DNA of 64,000 nucleotides from Demequina sediminicola (lineage in GTDB: Bacteria > Actinomycetota > Actinomycetes > Actinomycetales > Demequinaceae): positions 813,751 to 877,750 of the forward strand of contig NZ_BBRB01000001.1 in NCBI RefSeq assembly GCF_000975055.1, given 5' to 3'. This document shows positions 11,548 through 21,306 of the stretch, piece after piece. Below the pieces are notes generated by a model, which did not search any database, had not been told where the DNA came from, and saw only the letters and a program-made list of their open reading frames with translations. The translations under genes and the position numbers were made by a program. The number at the start of each line of letters is the position of its first letter. Position 1 is the stretch's first letter.

Positions 11548-14500
11548 GTGGCGATTTCTGGTGTCTTGTGGCGCTCGCTGGATTTTCGGTGTGTTTCTGG
11601 TCGTGTGGCCGCTGTGGTGGGCATCTCGACGTTGGCGTTGTTCGCGGGTCTTGAGGCGGGGCCGGCTGCGGCTGATGATGTCATTGCCGAGGACGTGGCT
11701 GAGACGGCCGGTTCCGAGTGGGGTGGCGATACCGCTCCCGATGCCATCGCTGCTGCAGCCTTGGCCGCGATCCGTGGTGTCCTGGTCGAGGACCTCTCCC
11801 AGCGCACTGAGGTGTCTCAGACGTTCGCGTTGCCAGATGGTCAGTGGCGGACCGATATTTCTACGGGTCCGGAGTGGGTTGCCACTGGAGAGGACCCGAC
11901 AAGCGATGAGGGCTGGGAGCACGCGGATAGCGACCTCGTGTCCAATGGTGATGGCGGGTTTGAGCCCAAGGCGCATGTCGCGGGCCTTCAGTTCAGTGGC
12001 GCTAGCGAGGGCCGTACCGAGGTTGTCGCGGGTCACGATGCTGACGGTGAACCGTTCTCGTTGTGGTGGGATGGCGGCCTTCCGGAGCCGATTGTGGCTG
12101 ATGATGCGATCCGCTATGTCGACGTGGAGCCCGGTATTGACCTGGTGTTCAAGGTTGACGCGACCGGTTATGAGCAGTTCTTTGTAGCCAAGGATTTACA
12201 GGCGTTGGAGAGTGTCGGGGAGTTGGCGATGCAGTTCGCTGCTCCGGAGTCTGATCTTCGCGTCGCCGGCGATGGTCTCGTGGTGCGTGGCGACGATGGT
12301 GACAGTGTCGCTCAGGTGTCGGATGTGTCGGCGTGGGACGCCGATTCTGACGCCTTGCACGTGGAGCCTGTCTCCGAGATGGCGCCTGATCCCAGCGCCG
12401 CTGCGGACCCGGCAGGCACTGCCGATGAGGCTATGGACCTGAACCAGCTTCCCACGGTGGTGGATGTTCCTGCGGAAATATCGGTTGCGTCCGATGTGGC
12501 CGAGGTGTCTATCGCGGCCGACGACGTGCCGTTCGATGAGGATGACGCTTTTCCGGTGGTGATTGATCCGTCGGCAAACCTGTCGATCTCTTTCGACACG
12601 TACGTGTCTGACGCGTGGTTGTCTGACCGTTCGGGTCAGACGGAACTTCTCATTGGTACCGCGAACTCGGGTGCTGACAAGTTCCGTTCCTACCTCAACG
12701 TCAGCATTTCGCCGATTCTGGGTAAGAAGGTCACGGCCGCGACATTGAAGCTGTACAACCACCACTCGTGGTCGTGTACGGCTAAGGGGTGGGAGGTGTG
12801 GTCGACATCGACGACGTCGACGGCGACGAGGTGGACCAATAAGCCGGCGTTCGGCACCAAGTATGCCTCGAGCACATCAACGAAGGGTTACTCGTCGTCG
12901 TGCGCCGACGGGTACGTCAGCGCGGACATCACGTCGATGGCGCAGGCGTGGTCGACGGGTACTGCAACGTCGAAGGGCGTTGGCATCAAGGCCGCATCCG
13001 AGACGGACAACTTTGGTTGGAAGCGGTTCTACTCCGGAAACTCGTCGTCGAACAAGCCGGTGATCTCGGTGACGTACAACAGCTACCCGAACACGCCATC
13101 GAGTGTGAAGGTCAACGCGACTGCTCCGGCCTCGGGCGCGGTGCTGTACACCAAGGACACGACGCCGACGTTTACGGCCACGGTGTCCGATCCCGATGGC
13201 AACAAAGTCAAGGGCCTGTTCACGATCAAGCAGGGATCGACCACGGTCGTCTCCAACGCTTCTGGAACATCCGTCGCTTCTGGCTCGACAACCACGTATA
13301 CGCCCGCGGCGCTCGCCCAAGGCAAGGCGTATGCGGTGTCGGTGGCAGCCAATGACGGTACCTTGACATCGAAGTCGTCCTCGTCGCCCACGTGGACGGT
13401 GTATGTCGACACTGCAGCGCCGGGAGCCACGGCGATCACGTCGTCGCAGTTCACCAACGGTCAGTGGAAGGACACCGCGCCGTCATCGGTCAGCGCCACA
13501 CTCAAAGCAACCGACGCCGTCAAGTTCGAGTACAAGGTCGACGGAGGAGCGGTGAAAACTGTCACAGCCTCGTCGACGTCCGCGACGATCACTGGGCTAC
13601 CGCGCGCCAAGGGTGGGCACAGGATCGAAGCGCGAGCCATCGACCGCGCCGCCAACACTGGCGCGTGGGGAGAGTTCGAGTACGGCATCGGATCAGTCGG
13701 CATCACCGCTCCAGCCGCCGGGTTCACCACGACCGACAAAGCCGTCGTGAAGGCCAGCGCCCCCCCGGGAGCAAACGGTGACGTGAAGCGCGCCGTGTAT
13801 TGGCGCCCGTCAGGCAAGGCCAACGGCTCGGGATACTCAGACGCGACGGGATCTGTAAGCGGCTGGACCAAGATTACTGACCTCTCAACCGTCGCCGCTG
13901 GCGCGGCTGCCGATGTGAACTACACCTGGTCGGCAGCCTCTTCCGTTCCCGACGCCTACGAACGTCTGCCGTATCGCATGGACGTGCAGGTGTGCTTTAC
14001 CTACGTCTACACCGCCGACACGCTGTGCAGTTGGACCGACGATGCCGACAGTCACACTTCGGTGGTGCGCCTACCCCACGCGTTCGGTGACGGCTTCCCC
14101 GTGACCGACGCGGGACCCGGTCAAGTCGCGCTCTGGACCGGCGAGTTCAACACTGCTGTGACCGACGTTTCCGTGCCCGGCTACACGGGCACGCTGTCCG
14201 TGTCGCGCTCGTACAACTCGTTTGCTGGCGGCACCGAGACCTCGCCCTTCGGGCCCGGCTGGGCCCCGTCGTTCGAGGGCAGTGATGCCGGTGCCGCGGG
14301 CCTGGCGGTGATCGACACCACCGGCATTAACGGCATGATCGCTTTGGAGGATGTCGACGGCACGTACTTGTTGTATGGCCAGCCCGGAGGCACAGCTACC
14401 GCGCAAAAGACGGGCACATATGTGCCTCTTGATGCCGACACCGCAAGTTCCGGCTGGCAGCTGTCGGTGGCGGGTTCGGGCACGAGCGCACGCCTGACGG

Positions 14501-17500
14501 TCGTCGACGAGGCAGGGGTCAGTACCGTCTGGGCCCACCGCGGTAGCGGACTGTGGCAGCAAGAGCGGGTCACCGAACCTGGCGGCGCCTCCACCACCTT
14601 CACCTACTCTCAGGGCAAGGTGAGCCGTATCCTCGCGCCTGTTCCCGACGGTGTGACGTGCACGACGCTAGTTGCGGGCTGCCGCGCGCTAAACATTTCG
14701 TACTACGCGACAACGGACGCTGCCGTGGGCGCCTATGCGGGCCGTGTCTCGCACATCACCTCGACTGCATGGGACCCGGTATTGGAGCAGATGACGGATG
14801 TGCCTGTCGCACAGTACTCGTATGACTCCAGTGGTCGTCTTACTAAGGTCACCGACCCGCGAAGCGGCCTCGCCACCTCTTACGGCTACGGCGCGGCAAC
14901 TGGATCGGGTGCGCCGACGCTGACATCGGTGACGCCGGCAGGTCTCGCTCCGTGGAAGATCGCCTACGGCAAGTCGACTCGAGGCGAGAACTCGGTACTG
15001 CAGGTCTCCCGCAAGAGCGCCGACGGCGACGGCACGTATATTCCCACCACGCGACTCGTGTATGGCCTGGAGCCTCCTAAGGTGCCGTCCGGTAGCCCCA
15101 ACGTGCGTGAAGCAGCCGCCGCATGGGGCCAATCCCGCATCCCGACACACGGATTCGCGGTCTTCACGCAAGGCTCAGATCCGGGTGGCTCAAGTGTGTC
15201 CGATGTCGACTCGAATGAGTGGCGTGACGCAGCAATCCAGTTCACGGACTCCCTGGGATACACGGTCAACGCGGTAAGTTTCGGTGCAGGGGCGTGGCAA
15301 TACACCGCCACCGAGTACGACGACGAGGGCCGCATCGTGCGAGTGCTCGACGAAGCCGCTACCGCGCACCTGATGGAGCAGTCAGCTTTGAACGACGGCG
15401 ACCCCGTCGCAGAAGAAGACGTCAATGCGGTCGGAACAGTCACGCGTTACAACAGTGACATCGTGGCCGCGTCAGCCATCACGGTCGGCTCTCTCACAAT
15501 CGCCAAGGGTGCAGTGATTCTTCCTGCCGGCAGTGTCGTCACCGATGAATGGGCGCCCGCTTCGGAAGACGCCGACGGCCAGCTGAGCCGCCTGCACACT
15601 CACTACATTTACGACCAGGGCGCTCCGAACTCGGGTATCAACGCTGCGACGGGGCAGCGATACGCGCTGGTGACCACCACCACGCAGTCACGTGCCGACG
15701 CGACCGAAGGCGCCTGGGACACGACGGTTCCCATTGCCACCGCAGAACCCACCATCGGTCAGACGCTAACCGGCTACAACCCCATCGACGGCGAGCCAGC
15801 AACGTCGGCTACCTCGGGGTGGACGCTTGGCTCTGCGACATCGACTACGACTGTCATGGGTGGCGGCCAAGACATCGTCAGCCACACCCGCTACGACGCT
15901 CTTGGTCGCATTGTCGAGCAGCGCCAACCGGGCTCTAGCGGCACTGATGCTGCGACCGAACGCACCATCTATTACACCGCCGGAACCAACACCGAGGATG
16001 CACTGTGTGGGGCAAAGCCCGCCTGGGCGGGACAAGTGTGCGCGACACGCACGGCTGAGTCCGCGCCCAGCACTCCCACGACACGAGTCGAGTCCTACAC
16101 GCGCGATCTCGCGCCCGCCACAGTCAGCGAGACCCTGGGCGACACCACACGCACCACCGTGACGACCTACCTCGCAGACGGCCGCACTGAATCAACCTCG
16201 ACGTCCGCCACCGGACTGGAGGGCTCGTCACCCGTCGCGAAAACTTGGACGCTCTACGACACCGCGACCGGGCTGGCGACCGCGACCGCATCGGCAAGTG
16301 TGGATGGTCCGGACGTGCGTTCCGGGTTTGACGCCTGGGGCCGCACCGTGTCCTACACGGACACCGATGGTGCGATCACCACCACGCAGTACAACGCTGC
16401 AGGTGATGTTGCCGCCGTTGATGACGGTCACTTCGTCACCACCTACACCTATGACGGCACCGATGCGGCGGGCGCCGACGAGCATCGCGGCCTCGCCACC
16501 GCGATGACCGTCACCGGCGCCGATGGAGGCTCGTACACGTACACGGCCGCCTACGATGCCGCCGGCAACCTCACCACGCAGCAACTGCCAGGGGGTCTGA
16601 CCCAAACGCGCACATACACCCTCGATGGCGATCCTATTGAGCTCGCGTATGTGGCTACCGACGTCGACGGTGAAACCGTTCCGCTGGTGGCGTGGAGTCA
16701 GCAGACGGACCTGTTCGGTCGCGTTATCGCCGAGTCCACTCCTAATGCGGGTATCGACCCAGCCGCGGTCAGTGCCTACAACCGCACCTATGCCTACGAT
16801 CGTGCAGGACGCCTGACGGACGTCACCGACCGCTCCCCCACATTGGTCGTGGACGGCACCACGGGTGAAGAGACAACGGCCACGCCGTGCGTGAGTCGCC
16901 ACTACAGCTTCGATACGCGAGGCAACCGACTCGCCCGCTCCACGGTGCTATCAGGTACTGACGGCATCTGTGCCGATGCTGCCGACGGCGCCACAGAGAC
17001 ATGGACCTACGACGACGCCGACCGCGTCCAAACGGCAGCTAACGCCGCCGGTGACTACGAGTACGACAGTTTCGGTCGCCAAACCCTCATCCCTGGGGCG
17101 GACAGCCCGGCAGGTATGAATGCTGGTGATCTGACGATTGGCTACTACGACACCGACCTGGCGCGCTCGATCACCCAAGCCGGTGCCACCACGACATTCG
17201 AGCTCGACCCGCTCATGCGCCGGTCCACCTCAACCACGTCTCGTGGCGAGGACACGTCGAGCACAGTGCGTCACTATGTCGACGACAGCGACGCCCCCGC
17301 GTGGGCCACATCGACCACTGCCGACGGCACCGCCACCATGAGCTGGTACGGTGCTTCACTGGCAGGCGACCTCGCCGTGACCATCACCGACGGCACGCCC
17401 AGAATGCAGTTGGCTGACTTGCACGGCGACGTCGCCCTACCCATCACCATCGGTAGCGACAACACTGTGGCCGCCATCGGCGCCTTCACCGACTACGACG

Positions 17501-18069
17501 AGTACGGACGGACCACCAGTGCGACCGTCACCGCTGAGACCGGGACCCTCACATACGGCTGGCTCGGAGCCAAGGAACGCGCCACCGACACCACCGGGCT
17601 CCTGCTGATGGGGGTACGCCTTTACAACCCCAACACCGGCCTATTCACCTCCGTCGACCCCATCCCCGGAGGCAACACCACCGCTTACGCCTACCCACAA
17701 GACCCCATCAACAAGTTCGACCTGGATGGCCGCGAGAAGCGCAAGGAGTTTTCAAGCGCGGAGCGTCGCGCAGCTGAGAAGGCCAGGGCCGGCCAACCTC
17801 TGACACGCGCGGAAGCCGCAGCATACAGAAGTTACAAGAAGAAGGCTGTATTCAACGAGAAGATCTCAAAGCAGCGCAATGTCGCTAAACGTCAGTCTTC
17901 TTACGGAAAGAGTAAGGGGCGCGGAGGTTCTATTAAGAGTTCGGGACTTGGAGGAGCTCTCCTTCTACTATCGACAGTCGCTGAGTCTCGGCGGATTTCG
18001 ACATGTCGTTCAGCGCGTGGTCATTACTATAGTTATTCGAGTGGTACATGCGTATCAACCTTGATGTAG
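11548..18069 (+). CDS. secreted DNRLRE/Rhs-repeat protein with variable C-terminal tip (polymorphic toxin candidate)
   Basis: A 2173-residue protein starting at GTG 11548 behind a G-rich ribosome site (GGGGG, 7-base gap). Residues 18-44 form a Sec-type signal region ending GPAAADD. About 345-512 is a DNRLRE-type adhesion module (FDTYVSDAWLSD, TRWTNKP). About 513-720 are Ig/FN3-like. About 841-895 is the DUF6531 block opening Rhs shells (GEFNTAVTDVSVPGYTGTLS), followed by many YD repeats. The Rhs core end (GVRLYNPNTGLFTSVDPIPG ... DPINKFDLDG) is at about 2025-2061. The last 112 residues are unrelated: Lys/Arg-rich with a short hydrophobic stretch (GLGGALLLLSTVAES) and two cysteines, in visibly lower-GC DNA. 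In known Rhs systems this tip is the toxin. I do not recognise its activity. Confidence 0.93.
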   Translation: MAISGVLWRSLDFRCVSGRVAAVVGISTLALFAGLEAGPAAADDVIAEDVAETAGSEWGGDTAPDAIAAAALAAIRGVLVEDLSQRTEVSQTFALPDGQWRTDISTGPEWVATGEDPTSDEGWEHADSDLVSNGDGGFEPKAHVAGLQFSGASEGRTEVVAGHDADGEPFSLWWDGGLPEPIVADDAIRYVDVEPGIDLVFKVDATGYEQFFVAKDLQALESVGELAMQFAAPESDLRVAGDGLVVRGDDGDSVAQVSDVSAWDADSDALHVEPVSEMAPDPSAAADPAGTADEAMDLNQLPTVVDVPAEISVASDVAEVSIAADDVPFDEDDAFPVVIDPSANLSISFDTYVSDAWLSDRSGQTELLIGTANSGADKFRSYLNVSISPILGKKVTAATLKLYNHHSWSCTAKGWEVWSTSTTSTATRWTNKPAFGTKYASSTSTKGYSSSCADGYVSADITSMAQAWSTGTATSKGVGIKAASETDNFGWKRFYSGNSSSNKPVISVTYNSYPNTPSSVKVNATAPASGAVLYTKDTTPTFTATVSDPDGNKVKGLFTIKQGSTTVVSNASGTSVASGSTTTYTPAALAQGKAYAVSVAANDGTLTSKSSSSPTWTVYVDTAAPGATAITSSQFTNGQWKDTAPSSVSATLKATDAVKFEYKVDGGAVKTVTASSTSATITGLPRAKGGHRIEARAIDRAANTGAWGEFEYGIGSVGITAPAAGFTTTDKAVVKASAPPGANGDVKRAVYWRPSGKANGSGYSDATGSVSGWTKITDLSTVAAGAAADVNYTWSAASSVPDAYERLPYRMDVQVCFTYVYTADTLCSWTDDADSHTSVVRLPHAFGDGFPVTDAGPGQVALWTGEFNTAVTDVSVPGYTGTLSVSRSYNSFAGGTETSPFGPGWAPSFEGSDAGAAGLAVIDTTGINGMIALEDVDGTYLLYGQPGGTATAQKTGTYVPLDADTASSGWQLSVAGSGTSARLTVVDEAGVSTVWAHRGSGLWQQERVTEPGGASTTFTYSQGKVSRILAPVPDGVTCTTLVAGCRALNISYYATTDAAVGAYAGRVSHITSTAWDPVLEQMTDVPVAQYSYDSSGRLTKVTDPRSGLATSYGYGAATGSGAPTLTSVTPAGLAPWKIAYGKSTRGENSVLQVSRKSADGDGTYIPTTRLVYGLEPPKVPSGSPNVREAAAAWGQSRIPTHGFAVFTQGSDPGGSSVSDVDSNEWRDAAIQFTDSLGYTVNAVSFGAGAWQYTATEYDDEGRIVRVLDEAATAHLMEQSALNDGDPVAEEDVNAVGTVTRYNSDIVAASAITVGSLTIAKGAVILPAGSVVTDEWAPASEDADGQLSRLHTHYIYDQGAPNSGINAATGQRYALVTTTTQSRADATEGAWDTTVPIATAEPTIGQTLTGYNPIDGEPATSATSGWTLGSATSTTTVMGGGQDIVSHTRYDALGRIVEQRQPGSSGTDAATERTIYYTAGTNTEDALCGAKPAWAGQVCATRTAESAPSTPTTRVESYTRDLAPATVSETLGDTTRTTVTTYLADGRTESTSTSATGLEGSSPVAKTWTLYDTATGLATATASASVDGPDVRSGFDAWGRTVSYTDTDGAITTTQYNAAGDVAAVDDGHFVTTYTYDGTDAAGADEHRGLATAMTVTGADGGSYTYTAAYDAAGNLTTQQLPGGLTQTRTYTLDGDPIELAYVATDVDGETVPLVAWSQQTDLFGRVIAESTPNAGIDPAAVSAYNRTYAYDRAGRLTDVTDRSPTLVVDGTTGEETTATPCVSRHYSFDTRGNRLARSTVLSGTDGICADAADGATETWTYDDADRVQTAANAAGDYEYDSFGRQTLIPGADSPAGMNAGDLTIGYYDTDLARSITQAGATTTFELDPLMRRSTSTTSRGEDTSSTVRHYVDDSDAPAWATSTTADGTATMSWYGASLAGDLAVTITDGTPRMQLADLHGDVALPITIGSDNTVAAIGAFTDYDEYGRTTSATVTAETGTLTYGWLGAKERATDTTGLLLMGVRLYNPNTGLFTSVDPIPGGNTTAYAYPQDPINKFDLDGREKRKEFSSAERRAAEKARAGQPLTRAEAAAYRSYKKKAVFNEKISKQRNVAKRQSSYGKSKGRGGSIKSSGLGGALLLLSTVAESRRISTCRSARGHYYSYSSGTCVSTLM

Positions 18070-18085
18070 CTACTGGAGGGATGAG

Positions 18086-18817
18086 GTGACAAGGGTCCTA
18101 AATGCATACATCCAATGGGAGAGGACATCGATGTCGGAGCATGACTTGGACGCTTCAGAACTTTTGAGTTTTCCTCGCCGTGTTGGTGCCCACCGCCTCG
18201 ACTCCGGTTGCGTCGGCTCTCGCAGTGTTGGTCAACCGCTTTCCGCGCGAGGGGTGAAGGTGCTCGACCACTACCTTGAGTCGACGCCCTCCGGCTTCGC
18301 GAGCGTCGTTGTTGTTCGCGCCGCGGCAAGCGCCGCGGGACCTGTGGAGATGAATGCGGCCTTCCTGCACACTGTTACGCGACATCATGCTCCAATATTG
18401 GTTGCAACCGGCTGGGCAGGAGGCCGTGACGAAGTCGACAGTCTGTTAGATCGCAAGATCACGGGGACGCACTTCGAGGAAGCGTGCGTCAGGTGGGAGC
18501 TCATTGTTCGGACCAGCAAGCTGGGGGTGCCACGAGTGTTGTCCAGCGCCACGGAGTGGTTTAGGGTCAGCTCCAATCCAGAGCGCGATGAGTCAGAGGT
18601 AAGCGCGCTTGTATCGCCCCAGGGTGTCCAAGAGCGAAATTACAACGGCCTTAAGTTCCCCACGTCGCTTTCTATCGAGGCTGTCGTCGAACCCGGCTGG
18701 GCTGTGATATCGATTCCATTGACCGTCGTCGAGATTGTCTCGAATACCCAGGGATCTATCTGGATGGATATCCAGCCCTCGCGTGCAGCTCTTGAGGACT
18801 GGAACGCCTCGCTATAG
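18086..18817 (+). CDS. unknown protein, candidate immunity protein for the Rhs tip
   Basis: A 243-residue protein of no family I recognise. The GTG at 18086 has GGAGGG five bases upstream and lies 16 bases after the Rhs stop. A second good start is the ATG at 18131 (GGAGAGG six bases upstream), which would give 228 residues. There is no signal peptide or clear membrane helix, so it is probably cytosolic. Mixed alpha/beta composition with segments such as GFASVVVVRAAAS and PGWAVISIPLTVVEIVS is visible. Its position right after the variable tip of the Rhs gene is where immunity genes sit in polymorphic-toxin loci; that role is inferred from position only. Confidence 0.7.
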   Translation: MTRVLNAYIQWERTSMSEHDLDASELLSFPRRVGAHRLDSGCVGSRSVGQPLSARGVKVLDHYLESTPSGFASVVVVRAAASAAGPVEMNAAFLHTVTRHHAPILVATGWAGGRDEVDSLLDRKITGTHFEEACVRWELIVRTSKLGVPRVLSSATEWFRVSSNPERDESEVSALVSPQGVQERNYNGLKFPTSLSIEAVVEPGWAVISIPLTVVEIVSNTQGSIWMDIQPSRAALEDWNASL

Positions 18818-19072: not shown

Positions 19073-19360
19073 ATGCAGCGTGTCGTGCGGCTGGTGCTGG
19101 ACCATCTCGACGAGCACCCGAATCTCACCGTCGCGTGCCAAACGGTCGCTGGACGCCTCGGCTTCGGAGCCGAGTCGCTGCGCCGGTGGGTGCGCCAAGC
19201 GGAGGTCGATGCTGGTGAACGTCAGGGTATGACGACGTCCGAGTCAGAGAAGATCCGCAAGCTCGAGTGCGAGAACCGCGAGCTGCGGGAGGCCAACGCG
19301 ATTCTCAAAGACGCAGCGGCTTTCTTGCGCTACGGGAACTCGACCCCCGTCGCCGTGTGA
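19073..19360 (+). CDS. IS3-family transposase OrfA
   Basis: A 95-residue protein with an N-terminal helix-turn-helix (TVACQTVAGRLGFGAESLRR, then WVRQAEVD) and a C-terminal coiled coil typical of OrfA (EKIRKLECENRELREANAIL, then KDAAAF). OrfA binds the element's ends. The end LRYGNSTPVAV looks off-frame: one frame over, the same DNA reads ALRELDPRRR, the usual OrfA end, so there may be a lesion or programmed slip near 19322. The stop is TGA at 19358-19360. Confidence 0.85.
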   Translation: MQRVVRLVLDHLDEHPNLTVACQTVAGRLGFGAESLRRWVRQAEVDAGERQGMTTSESEKIRKLECENRELREANAILKDAAAFLRYGNSTPVAV

Positions 19361-20304
19361 CACGTCTCGTTCATCGACGAGCAGCGCGCCAAGGGTCGTG
19401 CGGTCGAGTCGATCTGCGCCGTCTTGCGTGGGCAGGGTGTCCAGATCGCCGCACGAACCTACCGAGACTCACGTGTCCGTGACGCGTCGGTGCGTGATCG
19501 AGTGGATGCGGTCGTGATCGACGCGCTACTGGCCACGATGGGAGCTTCCGAGGGCATGTATGGGCGGCGAAGATGGTCTCCCACCTGCGCCGCTAGGGCC
19601 TACCGGCCTCGGCCCGTCAGGTCGACCGTCTCATGCGTGTCTTGGGACTCAACGGCCGAGTGCGCGGCCGTGGGGTGCGCACCACGATCGCTGATCGCAA
19701 TGCTGAGCGTGTCCCGGACCTGCTCGATCGGGGCTTCACTGCGCCCGCACCGAACATCCGCTGCGTCGCGGACTTCACCTACGTGCGCACGTGGGCCGGG
19801 TTCGCGTATGTGTCTTTCGTCATCGACTGCTACTCGCGTGCGATCGTCGGTTGGCACGCGTCGATGACCAAGACCACACCGCTGGTGACGACGGCACTGC
19901 GGATAGGGCTGTGGCGACGTGCCCGTGCTGGCCACTCCGCCAGCGACGGTCTGGTGCACCACTCCGACGCCGGAAGCCAGTTCACGTCCGTGTCGTTCGC
20001 CGAGACTCTCGCCCTTGAGGGCATCGCCGCATCGATCGGTTCTATCGGCGATGCCTACGATAAGCCACACGCAGAGTCCACAATCGGACTGTTCAAGAAC
20101 GAAGCAATCCGCGACGACTCACCACTCCGCACCGGCCCACTGAAGTGTCTCGAGGACGTCGAATGGGTCACGCTGGCATGGGTCGATTGGTACAACCAAC
20201 ACCGCCTCCACTCCCGCCTTGGCCACGTCCCACCAGACGAGTTCGAGGCGACCTACTACGCTGACATCACCACGCCAACACCACCGGTGCCGGCACCCAC
20301 ATAG
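19361..20304 (+). pseudogene. IS3-family transposase OrfB, frameshifted and interrupted
   Basis: OrfB is the DDE integrase part. The first part reads in the same frame as orfA from just after its stop (HVSFIDEQRAKGRAVESICA) up to EGMYGRR at about 19570. From there the similarity continues one frame over (KMVSHLRR, an amber TAG at 19594-19596, then GLPASARQVDRLMRVLGLNG). The catalytic region is present: CVADFTYVRTWAGFAYVSF, then HHSDAGSQFTS, then HAESTIGLFKNE with the last acidic residue. One frameshift and one nonsense codon should abolish function unless supplied in trans. Confidence 0.88.
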
Positions 20305-20330: not shown

Positions 20331-20560
20331 CGGTTTGGTGGCAGTTGGCGTGAGCATCTGGTGCGCGTTGAGGTGCGCGAAGATGCGTACGCAACTGACC
20401 GGAGACGCGCTAATACTTCATGGGCTCGTCGGAACCCGGAGAATTGCTCGCACATCGATTACTGCCGCGTGGGTCGAAGAGTCTGACGATCATGTACAGC
20501 TAACCGTCTACTCCCCGGTCCTTCAGATCGGCGGCGAAGAAATCATGCTTCACGCTCAGC
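20331..20560 (+). pseudogene. 5'-truncated copy of the PH-like membrane gene at 20854-21306
   Basis: Directly after the IS right end the sequence matches the downstream gene from about 20976 onward. The predicted proteins share SIWCALRCAxMRTxLTxDAL, LHGLVGTRRIAR, SITxAWVEESDDHV and LTVYxPVLQxGGxExML. The 5' part encoding the two membrane segments is missing, and similarity stops after the ATGCTTC at about 20546-20552. The piece has no start signal. It is a relic of a tandem duplication cut by the IS on one side and by a rearrangement on the other. Confidence 0.8.
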
Positions 20561-20573
20561 ACAGCGGGCCCAG

Positions 20574-20834
20574 TACGGTGGCGGATTCAAGAAGACGTGG
20601 AGGGCCTCGGCTGCCGATGGAGTCCTCACGGCGGCGACATTCGGCTTGGTGCGAGTACCCACGTCGTTGGCGAAGTACGGGCGCCTAAGTGGGGCGGTGA
20701 ACCGCGCGAAACCTACGAAGTCGTGGAAGGCCATGCCGCGTTGGCAGCGTCGAGCCGTCTCTGCCCCGTCGCTCGCGGTGGGGTCCTCGTATAGCCTCGG
20801 TTGCAAGGTTCGTGCGACTCGGTACTGCCGTTAG
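20574..20834 (+). pseudogene. orphan C-terminal fragment, possibly a displaced Rhs toxin tip
   Basis: In frame with the TAG at 20832-20834 there is an open stretch reading YGGGFKKTWRASAADGVLTA, then ATFGLVRVPTSLAKYGR, a Lys/Arg-rich part (NRAKPTKSWKAMPRWQRR) and GSSYSLGCKVRATRYCR. It has no start codon context or ribosome site of its own. Its layout (small hydrophobic/Gly segment, basic segment, C-terminal cysteines) is like the tip of the big Rhs protein, and it ends 19 bases before an intact gene, as a tip precedes its immunity gene. No sequence identity to the main tip is obvious. It may instead be a scrambled end of the truncated copy upstream. Confidence 0.35.
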
Positions 20835-20853
20835 AGAACACAGCGAGAATGGA

Positions 20854-21306
20854 ATGTCGATAGTGACGCTGCGCGCATGGAGTTGGAACATCGTGGGGGT
20901 ATCTGCATGTCTCATGTTTGCTTTGTCGGGCGCGGCGATGGCATCTGCAGGTGGCAACGGACTCTTTATCGTGGCCGGCCTAGTGACAGTTGGCGCGAGT
21001 ATCTGGTGCGCGCTGAGGTGCGCGATGATGCGCACACGACTGACTCGCGACGCACTAGTGCTCCATGGGCTCGTCGGAACCCGGAGAATCGCTCGCAAAT
21101 CGATTACGGGCGCGTGGGTTGAGGAGTCTGACGATCATGTGCTGCTCACCGTCTACGCTCCGGTCCTTCAGGTCGGCGGCGATGAGGTCATGCTTCGTGG
21201 CTTGACCAGCTATTCGCGTGGCGGTCGAATTTCAAGGCAGGTCGCGCAGGTCGAGGAGTGGCTTGGGCAGGGGTCCGCCGCCCTGACTGGCGAGACCGCG
21301 AGCTGA
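20854..21306 (+). CDS. small membrane protein with PH-like domain, candidate orphan immunity protein
   Basis: From the ATG at 20854 the protein has 150 residues. Two hydrophobic helices (about 11-28 and 33-50) are followed by a soluble domain with the pattern of small bacterial PH-domain proteins: LTRDALVLHGLVGTRRIARK, then SITGAWVEESDDHVLLTVY and a closing helix VAQVEEWLGQG. The open frame extends to a GTG at 20812, but that lies inside the upstream fragment. A second, broken copy lies at 20331-20560. Function is unknown. Location downstream of an Rhs gene and next to a tip-like fragment suggests an immunity protein, though a stand-alone membrane protein is equally possible. Confidence 0.65.
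   Translation: MSIVTLRAWSWNIVGVSACLMFALSGAAMASAGGNGLFIVAGLVTVGASIWCALRCAMMRTRLTRDALVLHGLVGTRRIARKSITGAWVEESDDHVLLTVYAPVLQVGGDEVMLRGLTSYSRGGRISRQVAQVEEWLGQGSAALTGETAS

What the first reader, a model, noticed from the sequence alone, without database searches (positions are those of the whole stretch)
17732..18817. Unrecognised Rhs tip plus adjacent gene: candidate new toxin-immunity pair
The Rhs core ends at DPINKFDLDG. The last 112 residues then switch to Lys/Arg-rich, lower-GC coding DNA with a short hydrophobic stretch and two cysteines. Sixteen bases later, behind a strong GGAGGG site, a 243-residue orphan protein begins. This is the textbook layout of a polymorphic toxin tip and its immunity protein, yet I recognise neither family.
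Basis: partly seen in the sequence, partly recalled or inferred. Interest (0 to 1): 0.72.

Follow-up and report, generated by a model that had tools for sequence, protein, structure and literature searches.

The report
New Rhs toxin tip and immunity gene
A giant secreted bacterial weapon protein ends in a swappable 112-residue tip followed by what is almost certainly its antidote gene; the layout is well known, but this tip and antidote match no catalogued family and were found in only two species of one genus.

Summary
A 2173-residue, Sec-signal-bearing Rhs/WapA-like protein (11548-18069) has a conserved core ending in DPINKFDLDG (17701-17730), then a 112-residue tip (17731-18066) of lower GC. 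A soluble acidic ORF of unknown family (18086-18817; true start perhaps ATG 18131) follows. Across 29 Rhs termini, pairwise identity falls from 0.64-0.74 in the last ten core residues to 0.14 immediately after that glycine. Tip and downstream protein match nothing in Pfam, NCBIfam, PHROGs or solved-structure sequences above chance. The tip has one relative, in another species of the genus: its first ~70 residues align well, its last ~40 do not. The gene behind that relative is weakly similar to the window's (about 24%, p about 0.001) and has a 77%-identical solitary copy ~96 kb away without any Rhs, as orphan immunity genes do. I conclude this is a toxin-immunity pair of a Gram-positive Rhs/WapA polymorphic toxin: a new member of a known kind. 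The toxic activity cannot be read from sequence; the lack of membrane helices in the putative immunity protein favours a cytosolic target. Toxicity and protection are inferred, not shown.

The parts
11548..18069 (+). Rhs/WapA-like polymorphic toxin, 2173 aa: Sec-type signal near residues 18-43, DNRLRE domain (350-509), DUF6531 (860-910), RHS/YD repeats, Rhs-associated core (1983-2061), variable tip
   Evidence: DUF6531, RHS_repeat; DNRLRE 2.9e-22, TIGR03696 Rhs_assc_core 1.5e-10; signal peptide read by eye from the N-terminus
17641..17730 (+). C-terminal end of the conserved Rhs core (LFTSVDPIPGGNTTAYAYPQDPINKFDLDG), a P-x4-D-x-x-G variant of the PxxxxDPxG autoprotease motif with both aspartates conserved in the listed relatives
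   Evidence: 29 Rhs termini; motif and catalytic aspartates as described in PMC8765631
17731..18066 (+). variable C-terminal tip, 112 aa, candidate toxin
   Evidence: abrupt loss of identity at 17731, GC drop, no family
17752..17946 (+). tip segment conserved in the G028 tip (SSAERRAAEKARAGQPLTRAEAAAYRSYKKK...SYGKSKG): predicted helical hairpin plus Lys/Ser/Gly linker
   Evidence: 44% identity over 69 aa, shuffle z 14.7; AF2 pLDDT about 85-95 over tip residues 1-50
17947..18066 (+). non-conserved C-terminal ~40 aa of the tip: hydrophobic run and two cysteines
   Evidence: not alignable with the G028 tip (z -0.6); AF2 pLDDT about 50-66
18075..18080 (+). GGAGGG ribosome-binding site, 5 nt before GTG 18086
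   Evidence: sequence
18086..18817 (+). candidate immunity gene, 243 aa from GTG 18086 or 228 aa from ATG 18131; soluble, acidic (pI 5.7)
   Evidence: weak similarity to the gene behind the related tip in G028

Best explanation
The locus encodes a Gram-positive (actinobacterial) Rhs/WapA-type polymorphic toxin and its cognate immunity protein. The 2173-aa protein is exported by Sec. Its YD-repeat core forms the usual cocoon and releases the last 112 residues at or near the DPINKFDLDG end. In a neighbouring cell the released tip acts as an antibacterial toxin. The 228/243-aa protein made from the next gene stays in the producer's cytosol and binds the tip to neutralise it. Shown here: architecture, exact variable boundary, lack of known families, a second tip of the same type in another species with a weakly similar gene in the same place, and a solitary second copy of that gene. 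Inferred: export, self-cleavage, toxicity, protection and binding. The most likely target is in the cytosol (nucleic acid or translation machinery; about 50%), because neither immunity candidate has a predicted membrane helix, but the chemistry is unknown.
For: Identity across 29 Rhs termini drops from 0.64-0.74 to 0.14 exactly after the DPINKxDxxG motif. Genus relatives carry unrelated tips, mostly with a following gene. The tip has a compositional break. Tandem partial core + tip + small-gene modules in G004, and a core fragment behind the G028 locus, show the rearrangement habit of Rhs loci. A tip of the same type occurs in G028 (E 1.6e-7, 44% over 69 aa), followed 27 nt later by a 237-aa gene weakly similar to the window's (end-gap-penalised global alignment, 2 of 2000 shuffles reach it). 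That gene has a 77%-identical solitary copy in the same genome beside a ychF-like gene. Candidate immunity proteins are acidic (pI 5.7, 4.5, 4.8) without a strong TM-like segment, while both tips are basic (+18).
Against: No activity can be recognised in the tip, and there is no catalytic motif to point at. The relation between the two immunity candidates is weak (hhalign probability 0.5%, P 0.11; free-end alignment p about 0.03-0.04; P0001 alone does not find the G028 gene), so pairing rests mainly on position. Strong positive charge is a general feature of tips in this Rhs clade (24 of 25 are basic), so it says little about the target. The tip family has only two members.
Confidence: 0.78

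Rival explanations
1. Membrane-acting tip: the hydrophobic C-terminal run (GLGGALLLLSTVA) inserts into the target's membrane and depolarises it.
For: Hydrophobic run in the non-conserved C-terminus; other tips of the clade carry TM-like segments and several have TM-bearing downstream proteins.
Against: The best 19-residue hydropathy is only 1.15, and 0.05 in the related G028 tip; neither immunity candidate has a strong TM-like segment (1.65 and 1.26), whereas several clade immunity candidates reach 2.1-2.8.
Confidence: 0.15
2. The tip is a degenerate or truncated leftover (non-functional CT) and the downstream ORF is an unrelated or orphan gene.
For: Small family, no recognisable catalytic motif, poorly predicted C-terminus, an IS3-like element starting about 250 nt downstream of the ORF.
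Against: The frame is open, and the N-terminal 70 aa are conserved across species with coding-type codon-position conservation; tip length is within the clade's range (94-229 aa); intact RBS and small intergenic gap, as in G028.
Confidence: 0.12
3. Structural or adhesive role: a wall-associated tip, not an antibacterial toxin.
For: YD-repeat proteins with other roles exist (general knowledge).
Against: Hypervariability exactly at the Rhs-CT boundary, an adjacent cytosolic-type ORF and a solitary copy of that ORF's relative fit interbacterial toxin-immunity systems.
Confidence: 0.06

Closest known systems
WapA/WapI of Bacillus subtilis and other Gram-positive Rhs-like polymorphic toxins (PMC3967940, PMC5566331)
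   Same: Very large Sec-type YD-repeat protein (WapA 2200-3600 aa), sequence-diverse C-terminus, small downstream gene
   Different: Tip and downstream gene match no catalogued family; activity unknown; actinobacterial host
Rhs-CT/RhsI pairs with orphan modules (Salmonella, PMC3967940)
   Same: Core ends at a conserved motif, CT switches after it; displaced core fragments with CT and downstream genes occur in the same genus (G004)
   Different: T6SS-linked in enterobacteria; here a Sec-type signal; the G028 orphan is an immunity-type gene alone, without CT
Rhs cocoon with C-terminal aspartyl autoprotease (RhsA, PMC8765631)
   Same: Two aspartates and the P-x4-D-x-x-G end are present in the listed relatives
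   Different: Motif is PxxxxDLDG or PxxxxDTxG instead of PxxxxDPxGL, and the +1 residue is R/K/N etc. instead of W/L/F; cleavage not tested

Membership tests
Rhs/WapA polymorphic toxin system | YD/RHS repeats and Rhs-associated core domain | tested here: met
   TIGR03696 1.5e-10, YD_repeat, RHS_repeat, all above cut-off
Rhs/WapA polymorphic toxin system | Conserved core followed by a C-terminus that differs between relatives at a fixed boundary | tested here: met
   29 termini, identity 0.64-0.74 to 0.14 at the boundary
Rhs/WapA polymorphic toxin system | Export signal (Sec for WapA type) | tested here: inconclusive
   Signal-like n/h/c regions read by eye; no predictor available
Rhs/WapA polymorphic toxin system | Small immunity gene closely downstream | tested here: met
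   ORF 16 nt (or 61 nt) after the stop; same place in G028. That it confers immunity is not tested.
Rhs/WapA polymorphic toxin system | CT inhibits growth and the downstream protein protects specifically | not testable with these tools
   needs expression and competition assays
Rhs C-terminal aspartyl autoprotease | PxxxxDPxG(W/L/F) motif and catalytic aspartate pair | tested here: inconclusive
   P-x4-D-x-x-G and both aspartates present, but second P and +1 aromatic/Leu absent (motif)
Any catalogued toxin domain family (Pfam, NCBIfam, PHROGs, PADLOC) | Profile match of the 112-aa tip | tested here: not met
   no match at E up to 1 nor in Pfam at 10
Any catalogued immunity family (Imm*, SUKH, SuFu, DUF4279 etc.) | Profile match of the downstream protein or its two relatives | tested here: not met
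   no match above chance; DUF4279 profile does not hit the locus

The most novel reading that the evidence does not exclude
The tip is itself two modules: a genus-specific cationic helical hairpin with Lys/Ser/Gly linker that replaces the hydrophobic segment most tips of this clade carry after the core and serves as an alternative entry or linker module, and a miniature ~40-residue, fast-changing toxic end that the 228/243-aa immunity protein recognises.
Probability: 0.2. Interest if true: 0.55.

Novelty: new member of a known kind. Interest (0 to 1): 0.36.

Why it matters
Gram-positive Rhs/WapA toxins are less studied than Gram-negative ones, and new toxin-immunity families often bring new enzymatic activities or targets. 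This pair is small, uncatalogued and easy to test; the conserved N-terminal part with a variable C-terminal part also asks which section of a short Rhs tip is toxic and which serves entry. It does not change the picture of how such systems are built.

Tried and rejected
Pfam, NCBIfam, PHROGs and PADLOC on the tip, the downstream protein and their relatives: nothing above chance; QueH 0.083 on the G028 tip lies below its cut-off. PDB sequence profiles: only antibody, designed-protein and similar chance hits at E above 0.1. My idea that the downstream protein is a DUF4279 relative: the profile does not hit the locus. AF2 on the downstream protein alone: pLDDT 35, unusable. AF2 on the tip: only the helical hairpin is confident; Foldseek best E 2.2, no match. 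Relatives outside the genus: none convincing in samples of 396 order and 395 class genomes, 15 genomes of core relatives, IMG/VR, plasmids, phages (tip only) or the GTDB contig scan for the tip. The G242 hit is a LacI-type regulator frame; G776 is a Lys-rich match in a frame with a stop; the G018 and G591 immunity-profile hits (E about 1e-3, about 20 bits) were not pursued. Charge as evidence for a nucleic-acid target: rejected, because nearly all tips of the clade are basic.

Full report
Observation. The window holds a 2173-residue ORF (11548-18069) with a signal-like N-terminus, a DNRLRE domain, DUF6531, RHS/YD repeats and the Rhs-associated core. DPINKFDLDG is encoded at 17701-17730 and the remaining 112 residues at 17731-18066. 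Several of my early queries began at 17734 and so lack the first residue of the tip; this does not affect the results. The tip is 52.6% GC (GC3 49.5%) against 63.7% (74.2%) in the core, and no 333-nt stretch of the core is as low (minimum 56.8%). K+R is 23% against a core maximum of 13.5% in any 111-residue stretch. The next ORF runs 18086-18817 (243 aa), 16 nt after the stop, with GGAGGG 5 nt before GTG. ATG 18131, behind GGGAGAGG, gives a 228-aa product whose start (MSEHDLDASELLSF) resembles that of the G028 gene (MTEIDSASVFSG) and improves the global alignment from 13/2000 to 2/2000 shuffles, so the true start may be there.

Boundary test. The core has eight further matches in five other genomes of the genus, and 19 loci in other actinobacteria (Actinotalea, Sanguibacter, Oerskovia, Cellulomonas, Brachybacterium, Frankia and others). 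In 29 termini anchored at the final glycine, mean pairwise identity is 0.42-0.57 over core positions -40 to -11, 0.74 and 0.64 in the last two blocks of five, then 0.14, 0.14, 0.13 and lower after the glycine. The tips are mostly unrelated to each other by eye, and many are followed by small genes, several of them membrane proteins. G004 carries partial core fragments each followed by a different tip and small gene, and G028 has a displaced core fragment downstream. This is the organisation described for Rhs and WapA loci with orphan modules (PMC3967940) and for polymorphic toxin loci in general (PMC3482391).

Families. Neither tip nor downstream protein matches Pfam, NCBIfam, PADLOC, PHROGs or PDB sequences above chance. 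Single-sequence AF2 gives a confident helical hairpin for tip residues 8-56 and low confidence for the rest; Foldseek has no match. The downstream protein could not be modelled (pLDDT 35).

The one relative. In the genus, only G028 has a related tip (E 1.6e-7, 44% identity over 69 aa), at the end of a 2278-aa frame with the same core. The similarity covers the hairpin and the Lys/Ser/Gly linker (z 12.5-14.7); the last ~40 residues do not align (z -0.6). The gene 27 nt behind it encodes 237 aa. Its similarity to the window's gene is weak: P0001 alone misses it, hhalign gives probability 0.5% and P 0.11, local shuffles 20/1000, and a global alignment with end-gap penalties from ATG 18131 gives 2/2000. 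I treat the two as probably homologous, helped by their equal position. A profile of the three sequences contains them by construction, so its strong E-values are not independent evidence for the window gene. They do show that the 236-aa copy in G028, ~96 kb away, is a solitary, 77%-identical relative of the linked one, next to a ychF-like gene and without an Rhs frame. Solitary immunity genes are a known feature of polymorphic toxin systems.

Distribution. No convincing relative of either part was found in the other genomes of the genus, in samples of order and class, in genomes of core relatives, or in IMG/VR, plasmids and phages as far as searched. The GTDB contig collection was scanned once with the tip (nothing) and once with the core; the downstream protein was not scanned there. 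Rarity is therefore shown at this depth, not for all sequence space.

How it most likely works. Sec export, cocoon, release at or near DPINKFDLDG, entry into a neighbour and intoxication, with the downstream protein protecting the producer. The core end keeps both aspartates and P-x4-D-x-x-G of the Rhs autoprotease (PMC8765631), but not the second proline or the W/L/F after the glycine, so self-cleavage is likely but untested. The absence of strong TM-like segments in both immunity candidates argues for a cytosolic target; several other tips in the clade have TM-bearing downstream proteins. Positive charge of the tip is uninformative because nearly the whole clade shows it.

Verdict. It is a new member of a known kind: new toxin and immunity sequences in a standard polymorphic-toxin layout. 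The two-part structure of the tip is the most interesting feature, and rests on two sequences.

Noticed in passing
window 20335-20688 and 20812-21306 (+): Tandem paralogues (77.5% identical over 80 aa; the first is truncated), weakly like a bacterial PH domain (bPH_6 0.024) and 31% identical (E 9e-5) to the gene that follows an Rhs tip in G004: likely orphan immunity genes downstream of this Rhs locus.
   Followed up: partly
window 19073-20304 (+): IS3-like element (HTH_Tnp_1 ORF, then rve integrase ORF) directly behind the immunity candidate.
   Followed up: partly
L014 (G004:C1:1049000-1058000) and L013 (G004:C1:2838500-2848600): Repeated partial Rhs cores each with a different tip and small gene: an orphan toxin-immunity cassette array in another species of the genus.
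   Followed up: partly
L044 8070-8933 and 9088-9519: Solitary copy of the P0001-like gene beside a ychF-like gene in G028, followed by a 143-aa ORF of unknown family: possible small polyimmunity locus.
   Followed up: partly
L023 and L037, tips after the core: Tips of the same Rhs clade in Actinotalea sp. C106 and Brachybacterium paraconglomeratum look like GIY-YIG-type nucleases by eye (KYVGQSGNVGRRLSEH, KYVGRSNNMYRRIGEH).
   Followed up: no
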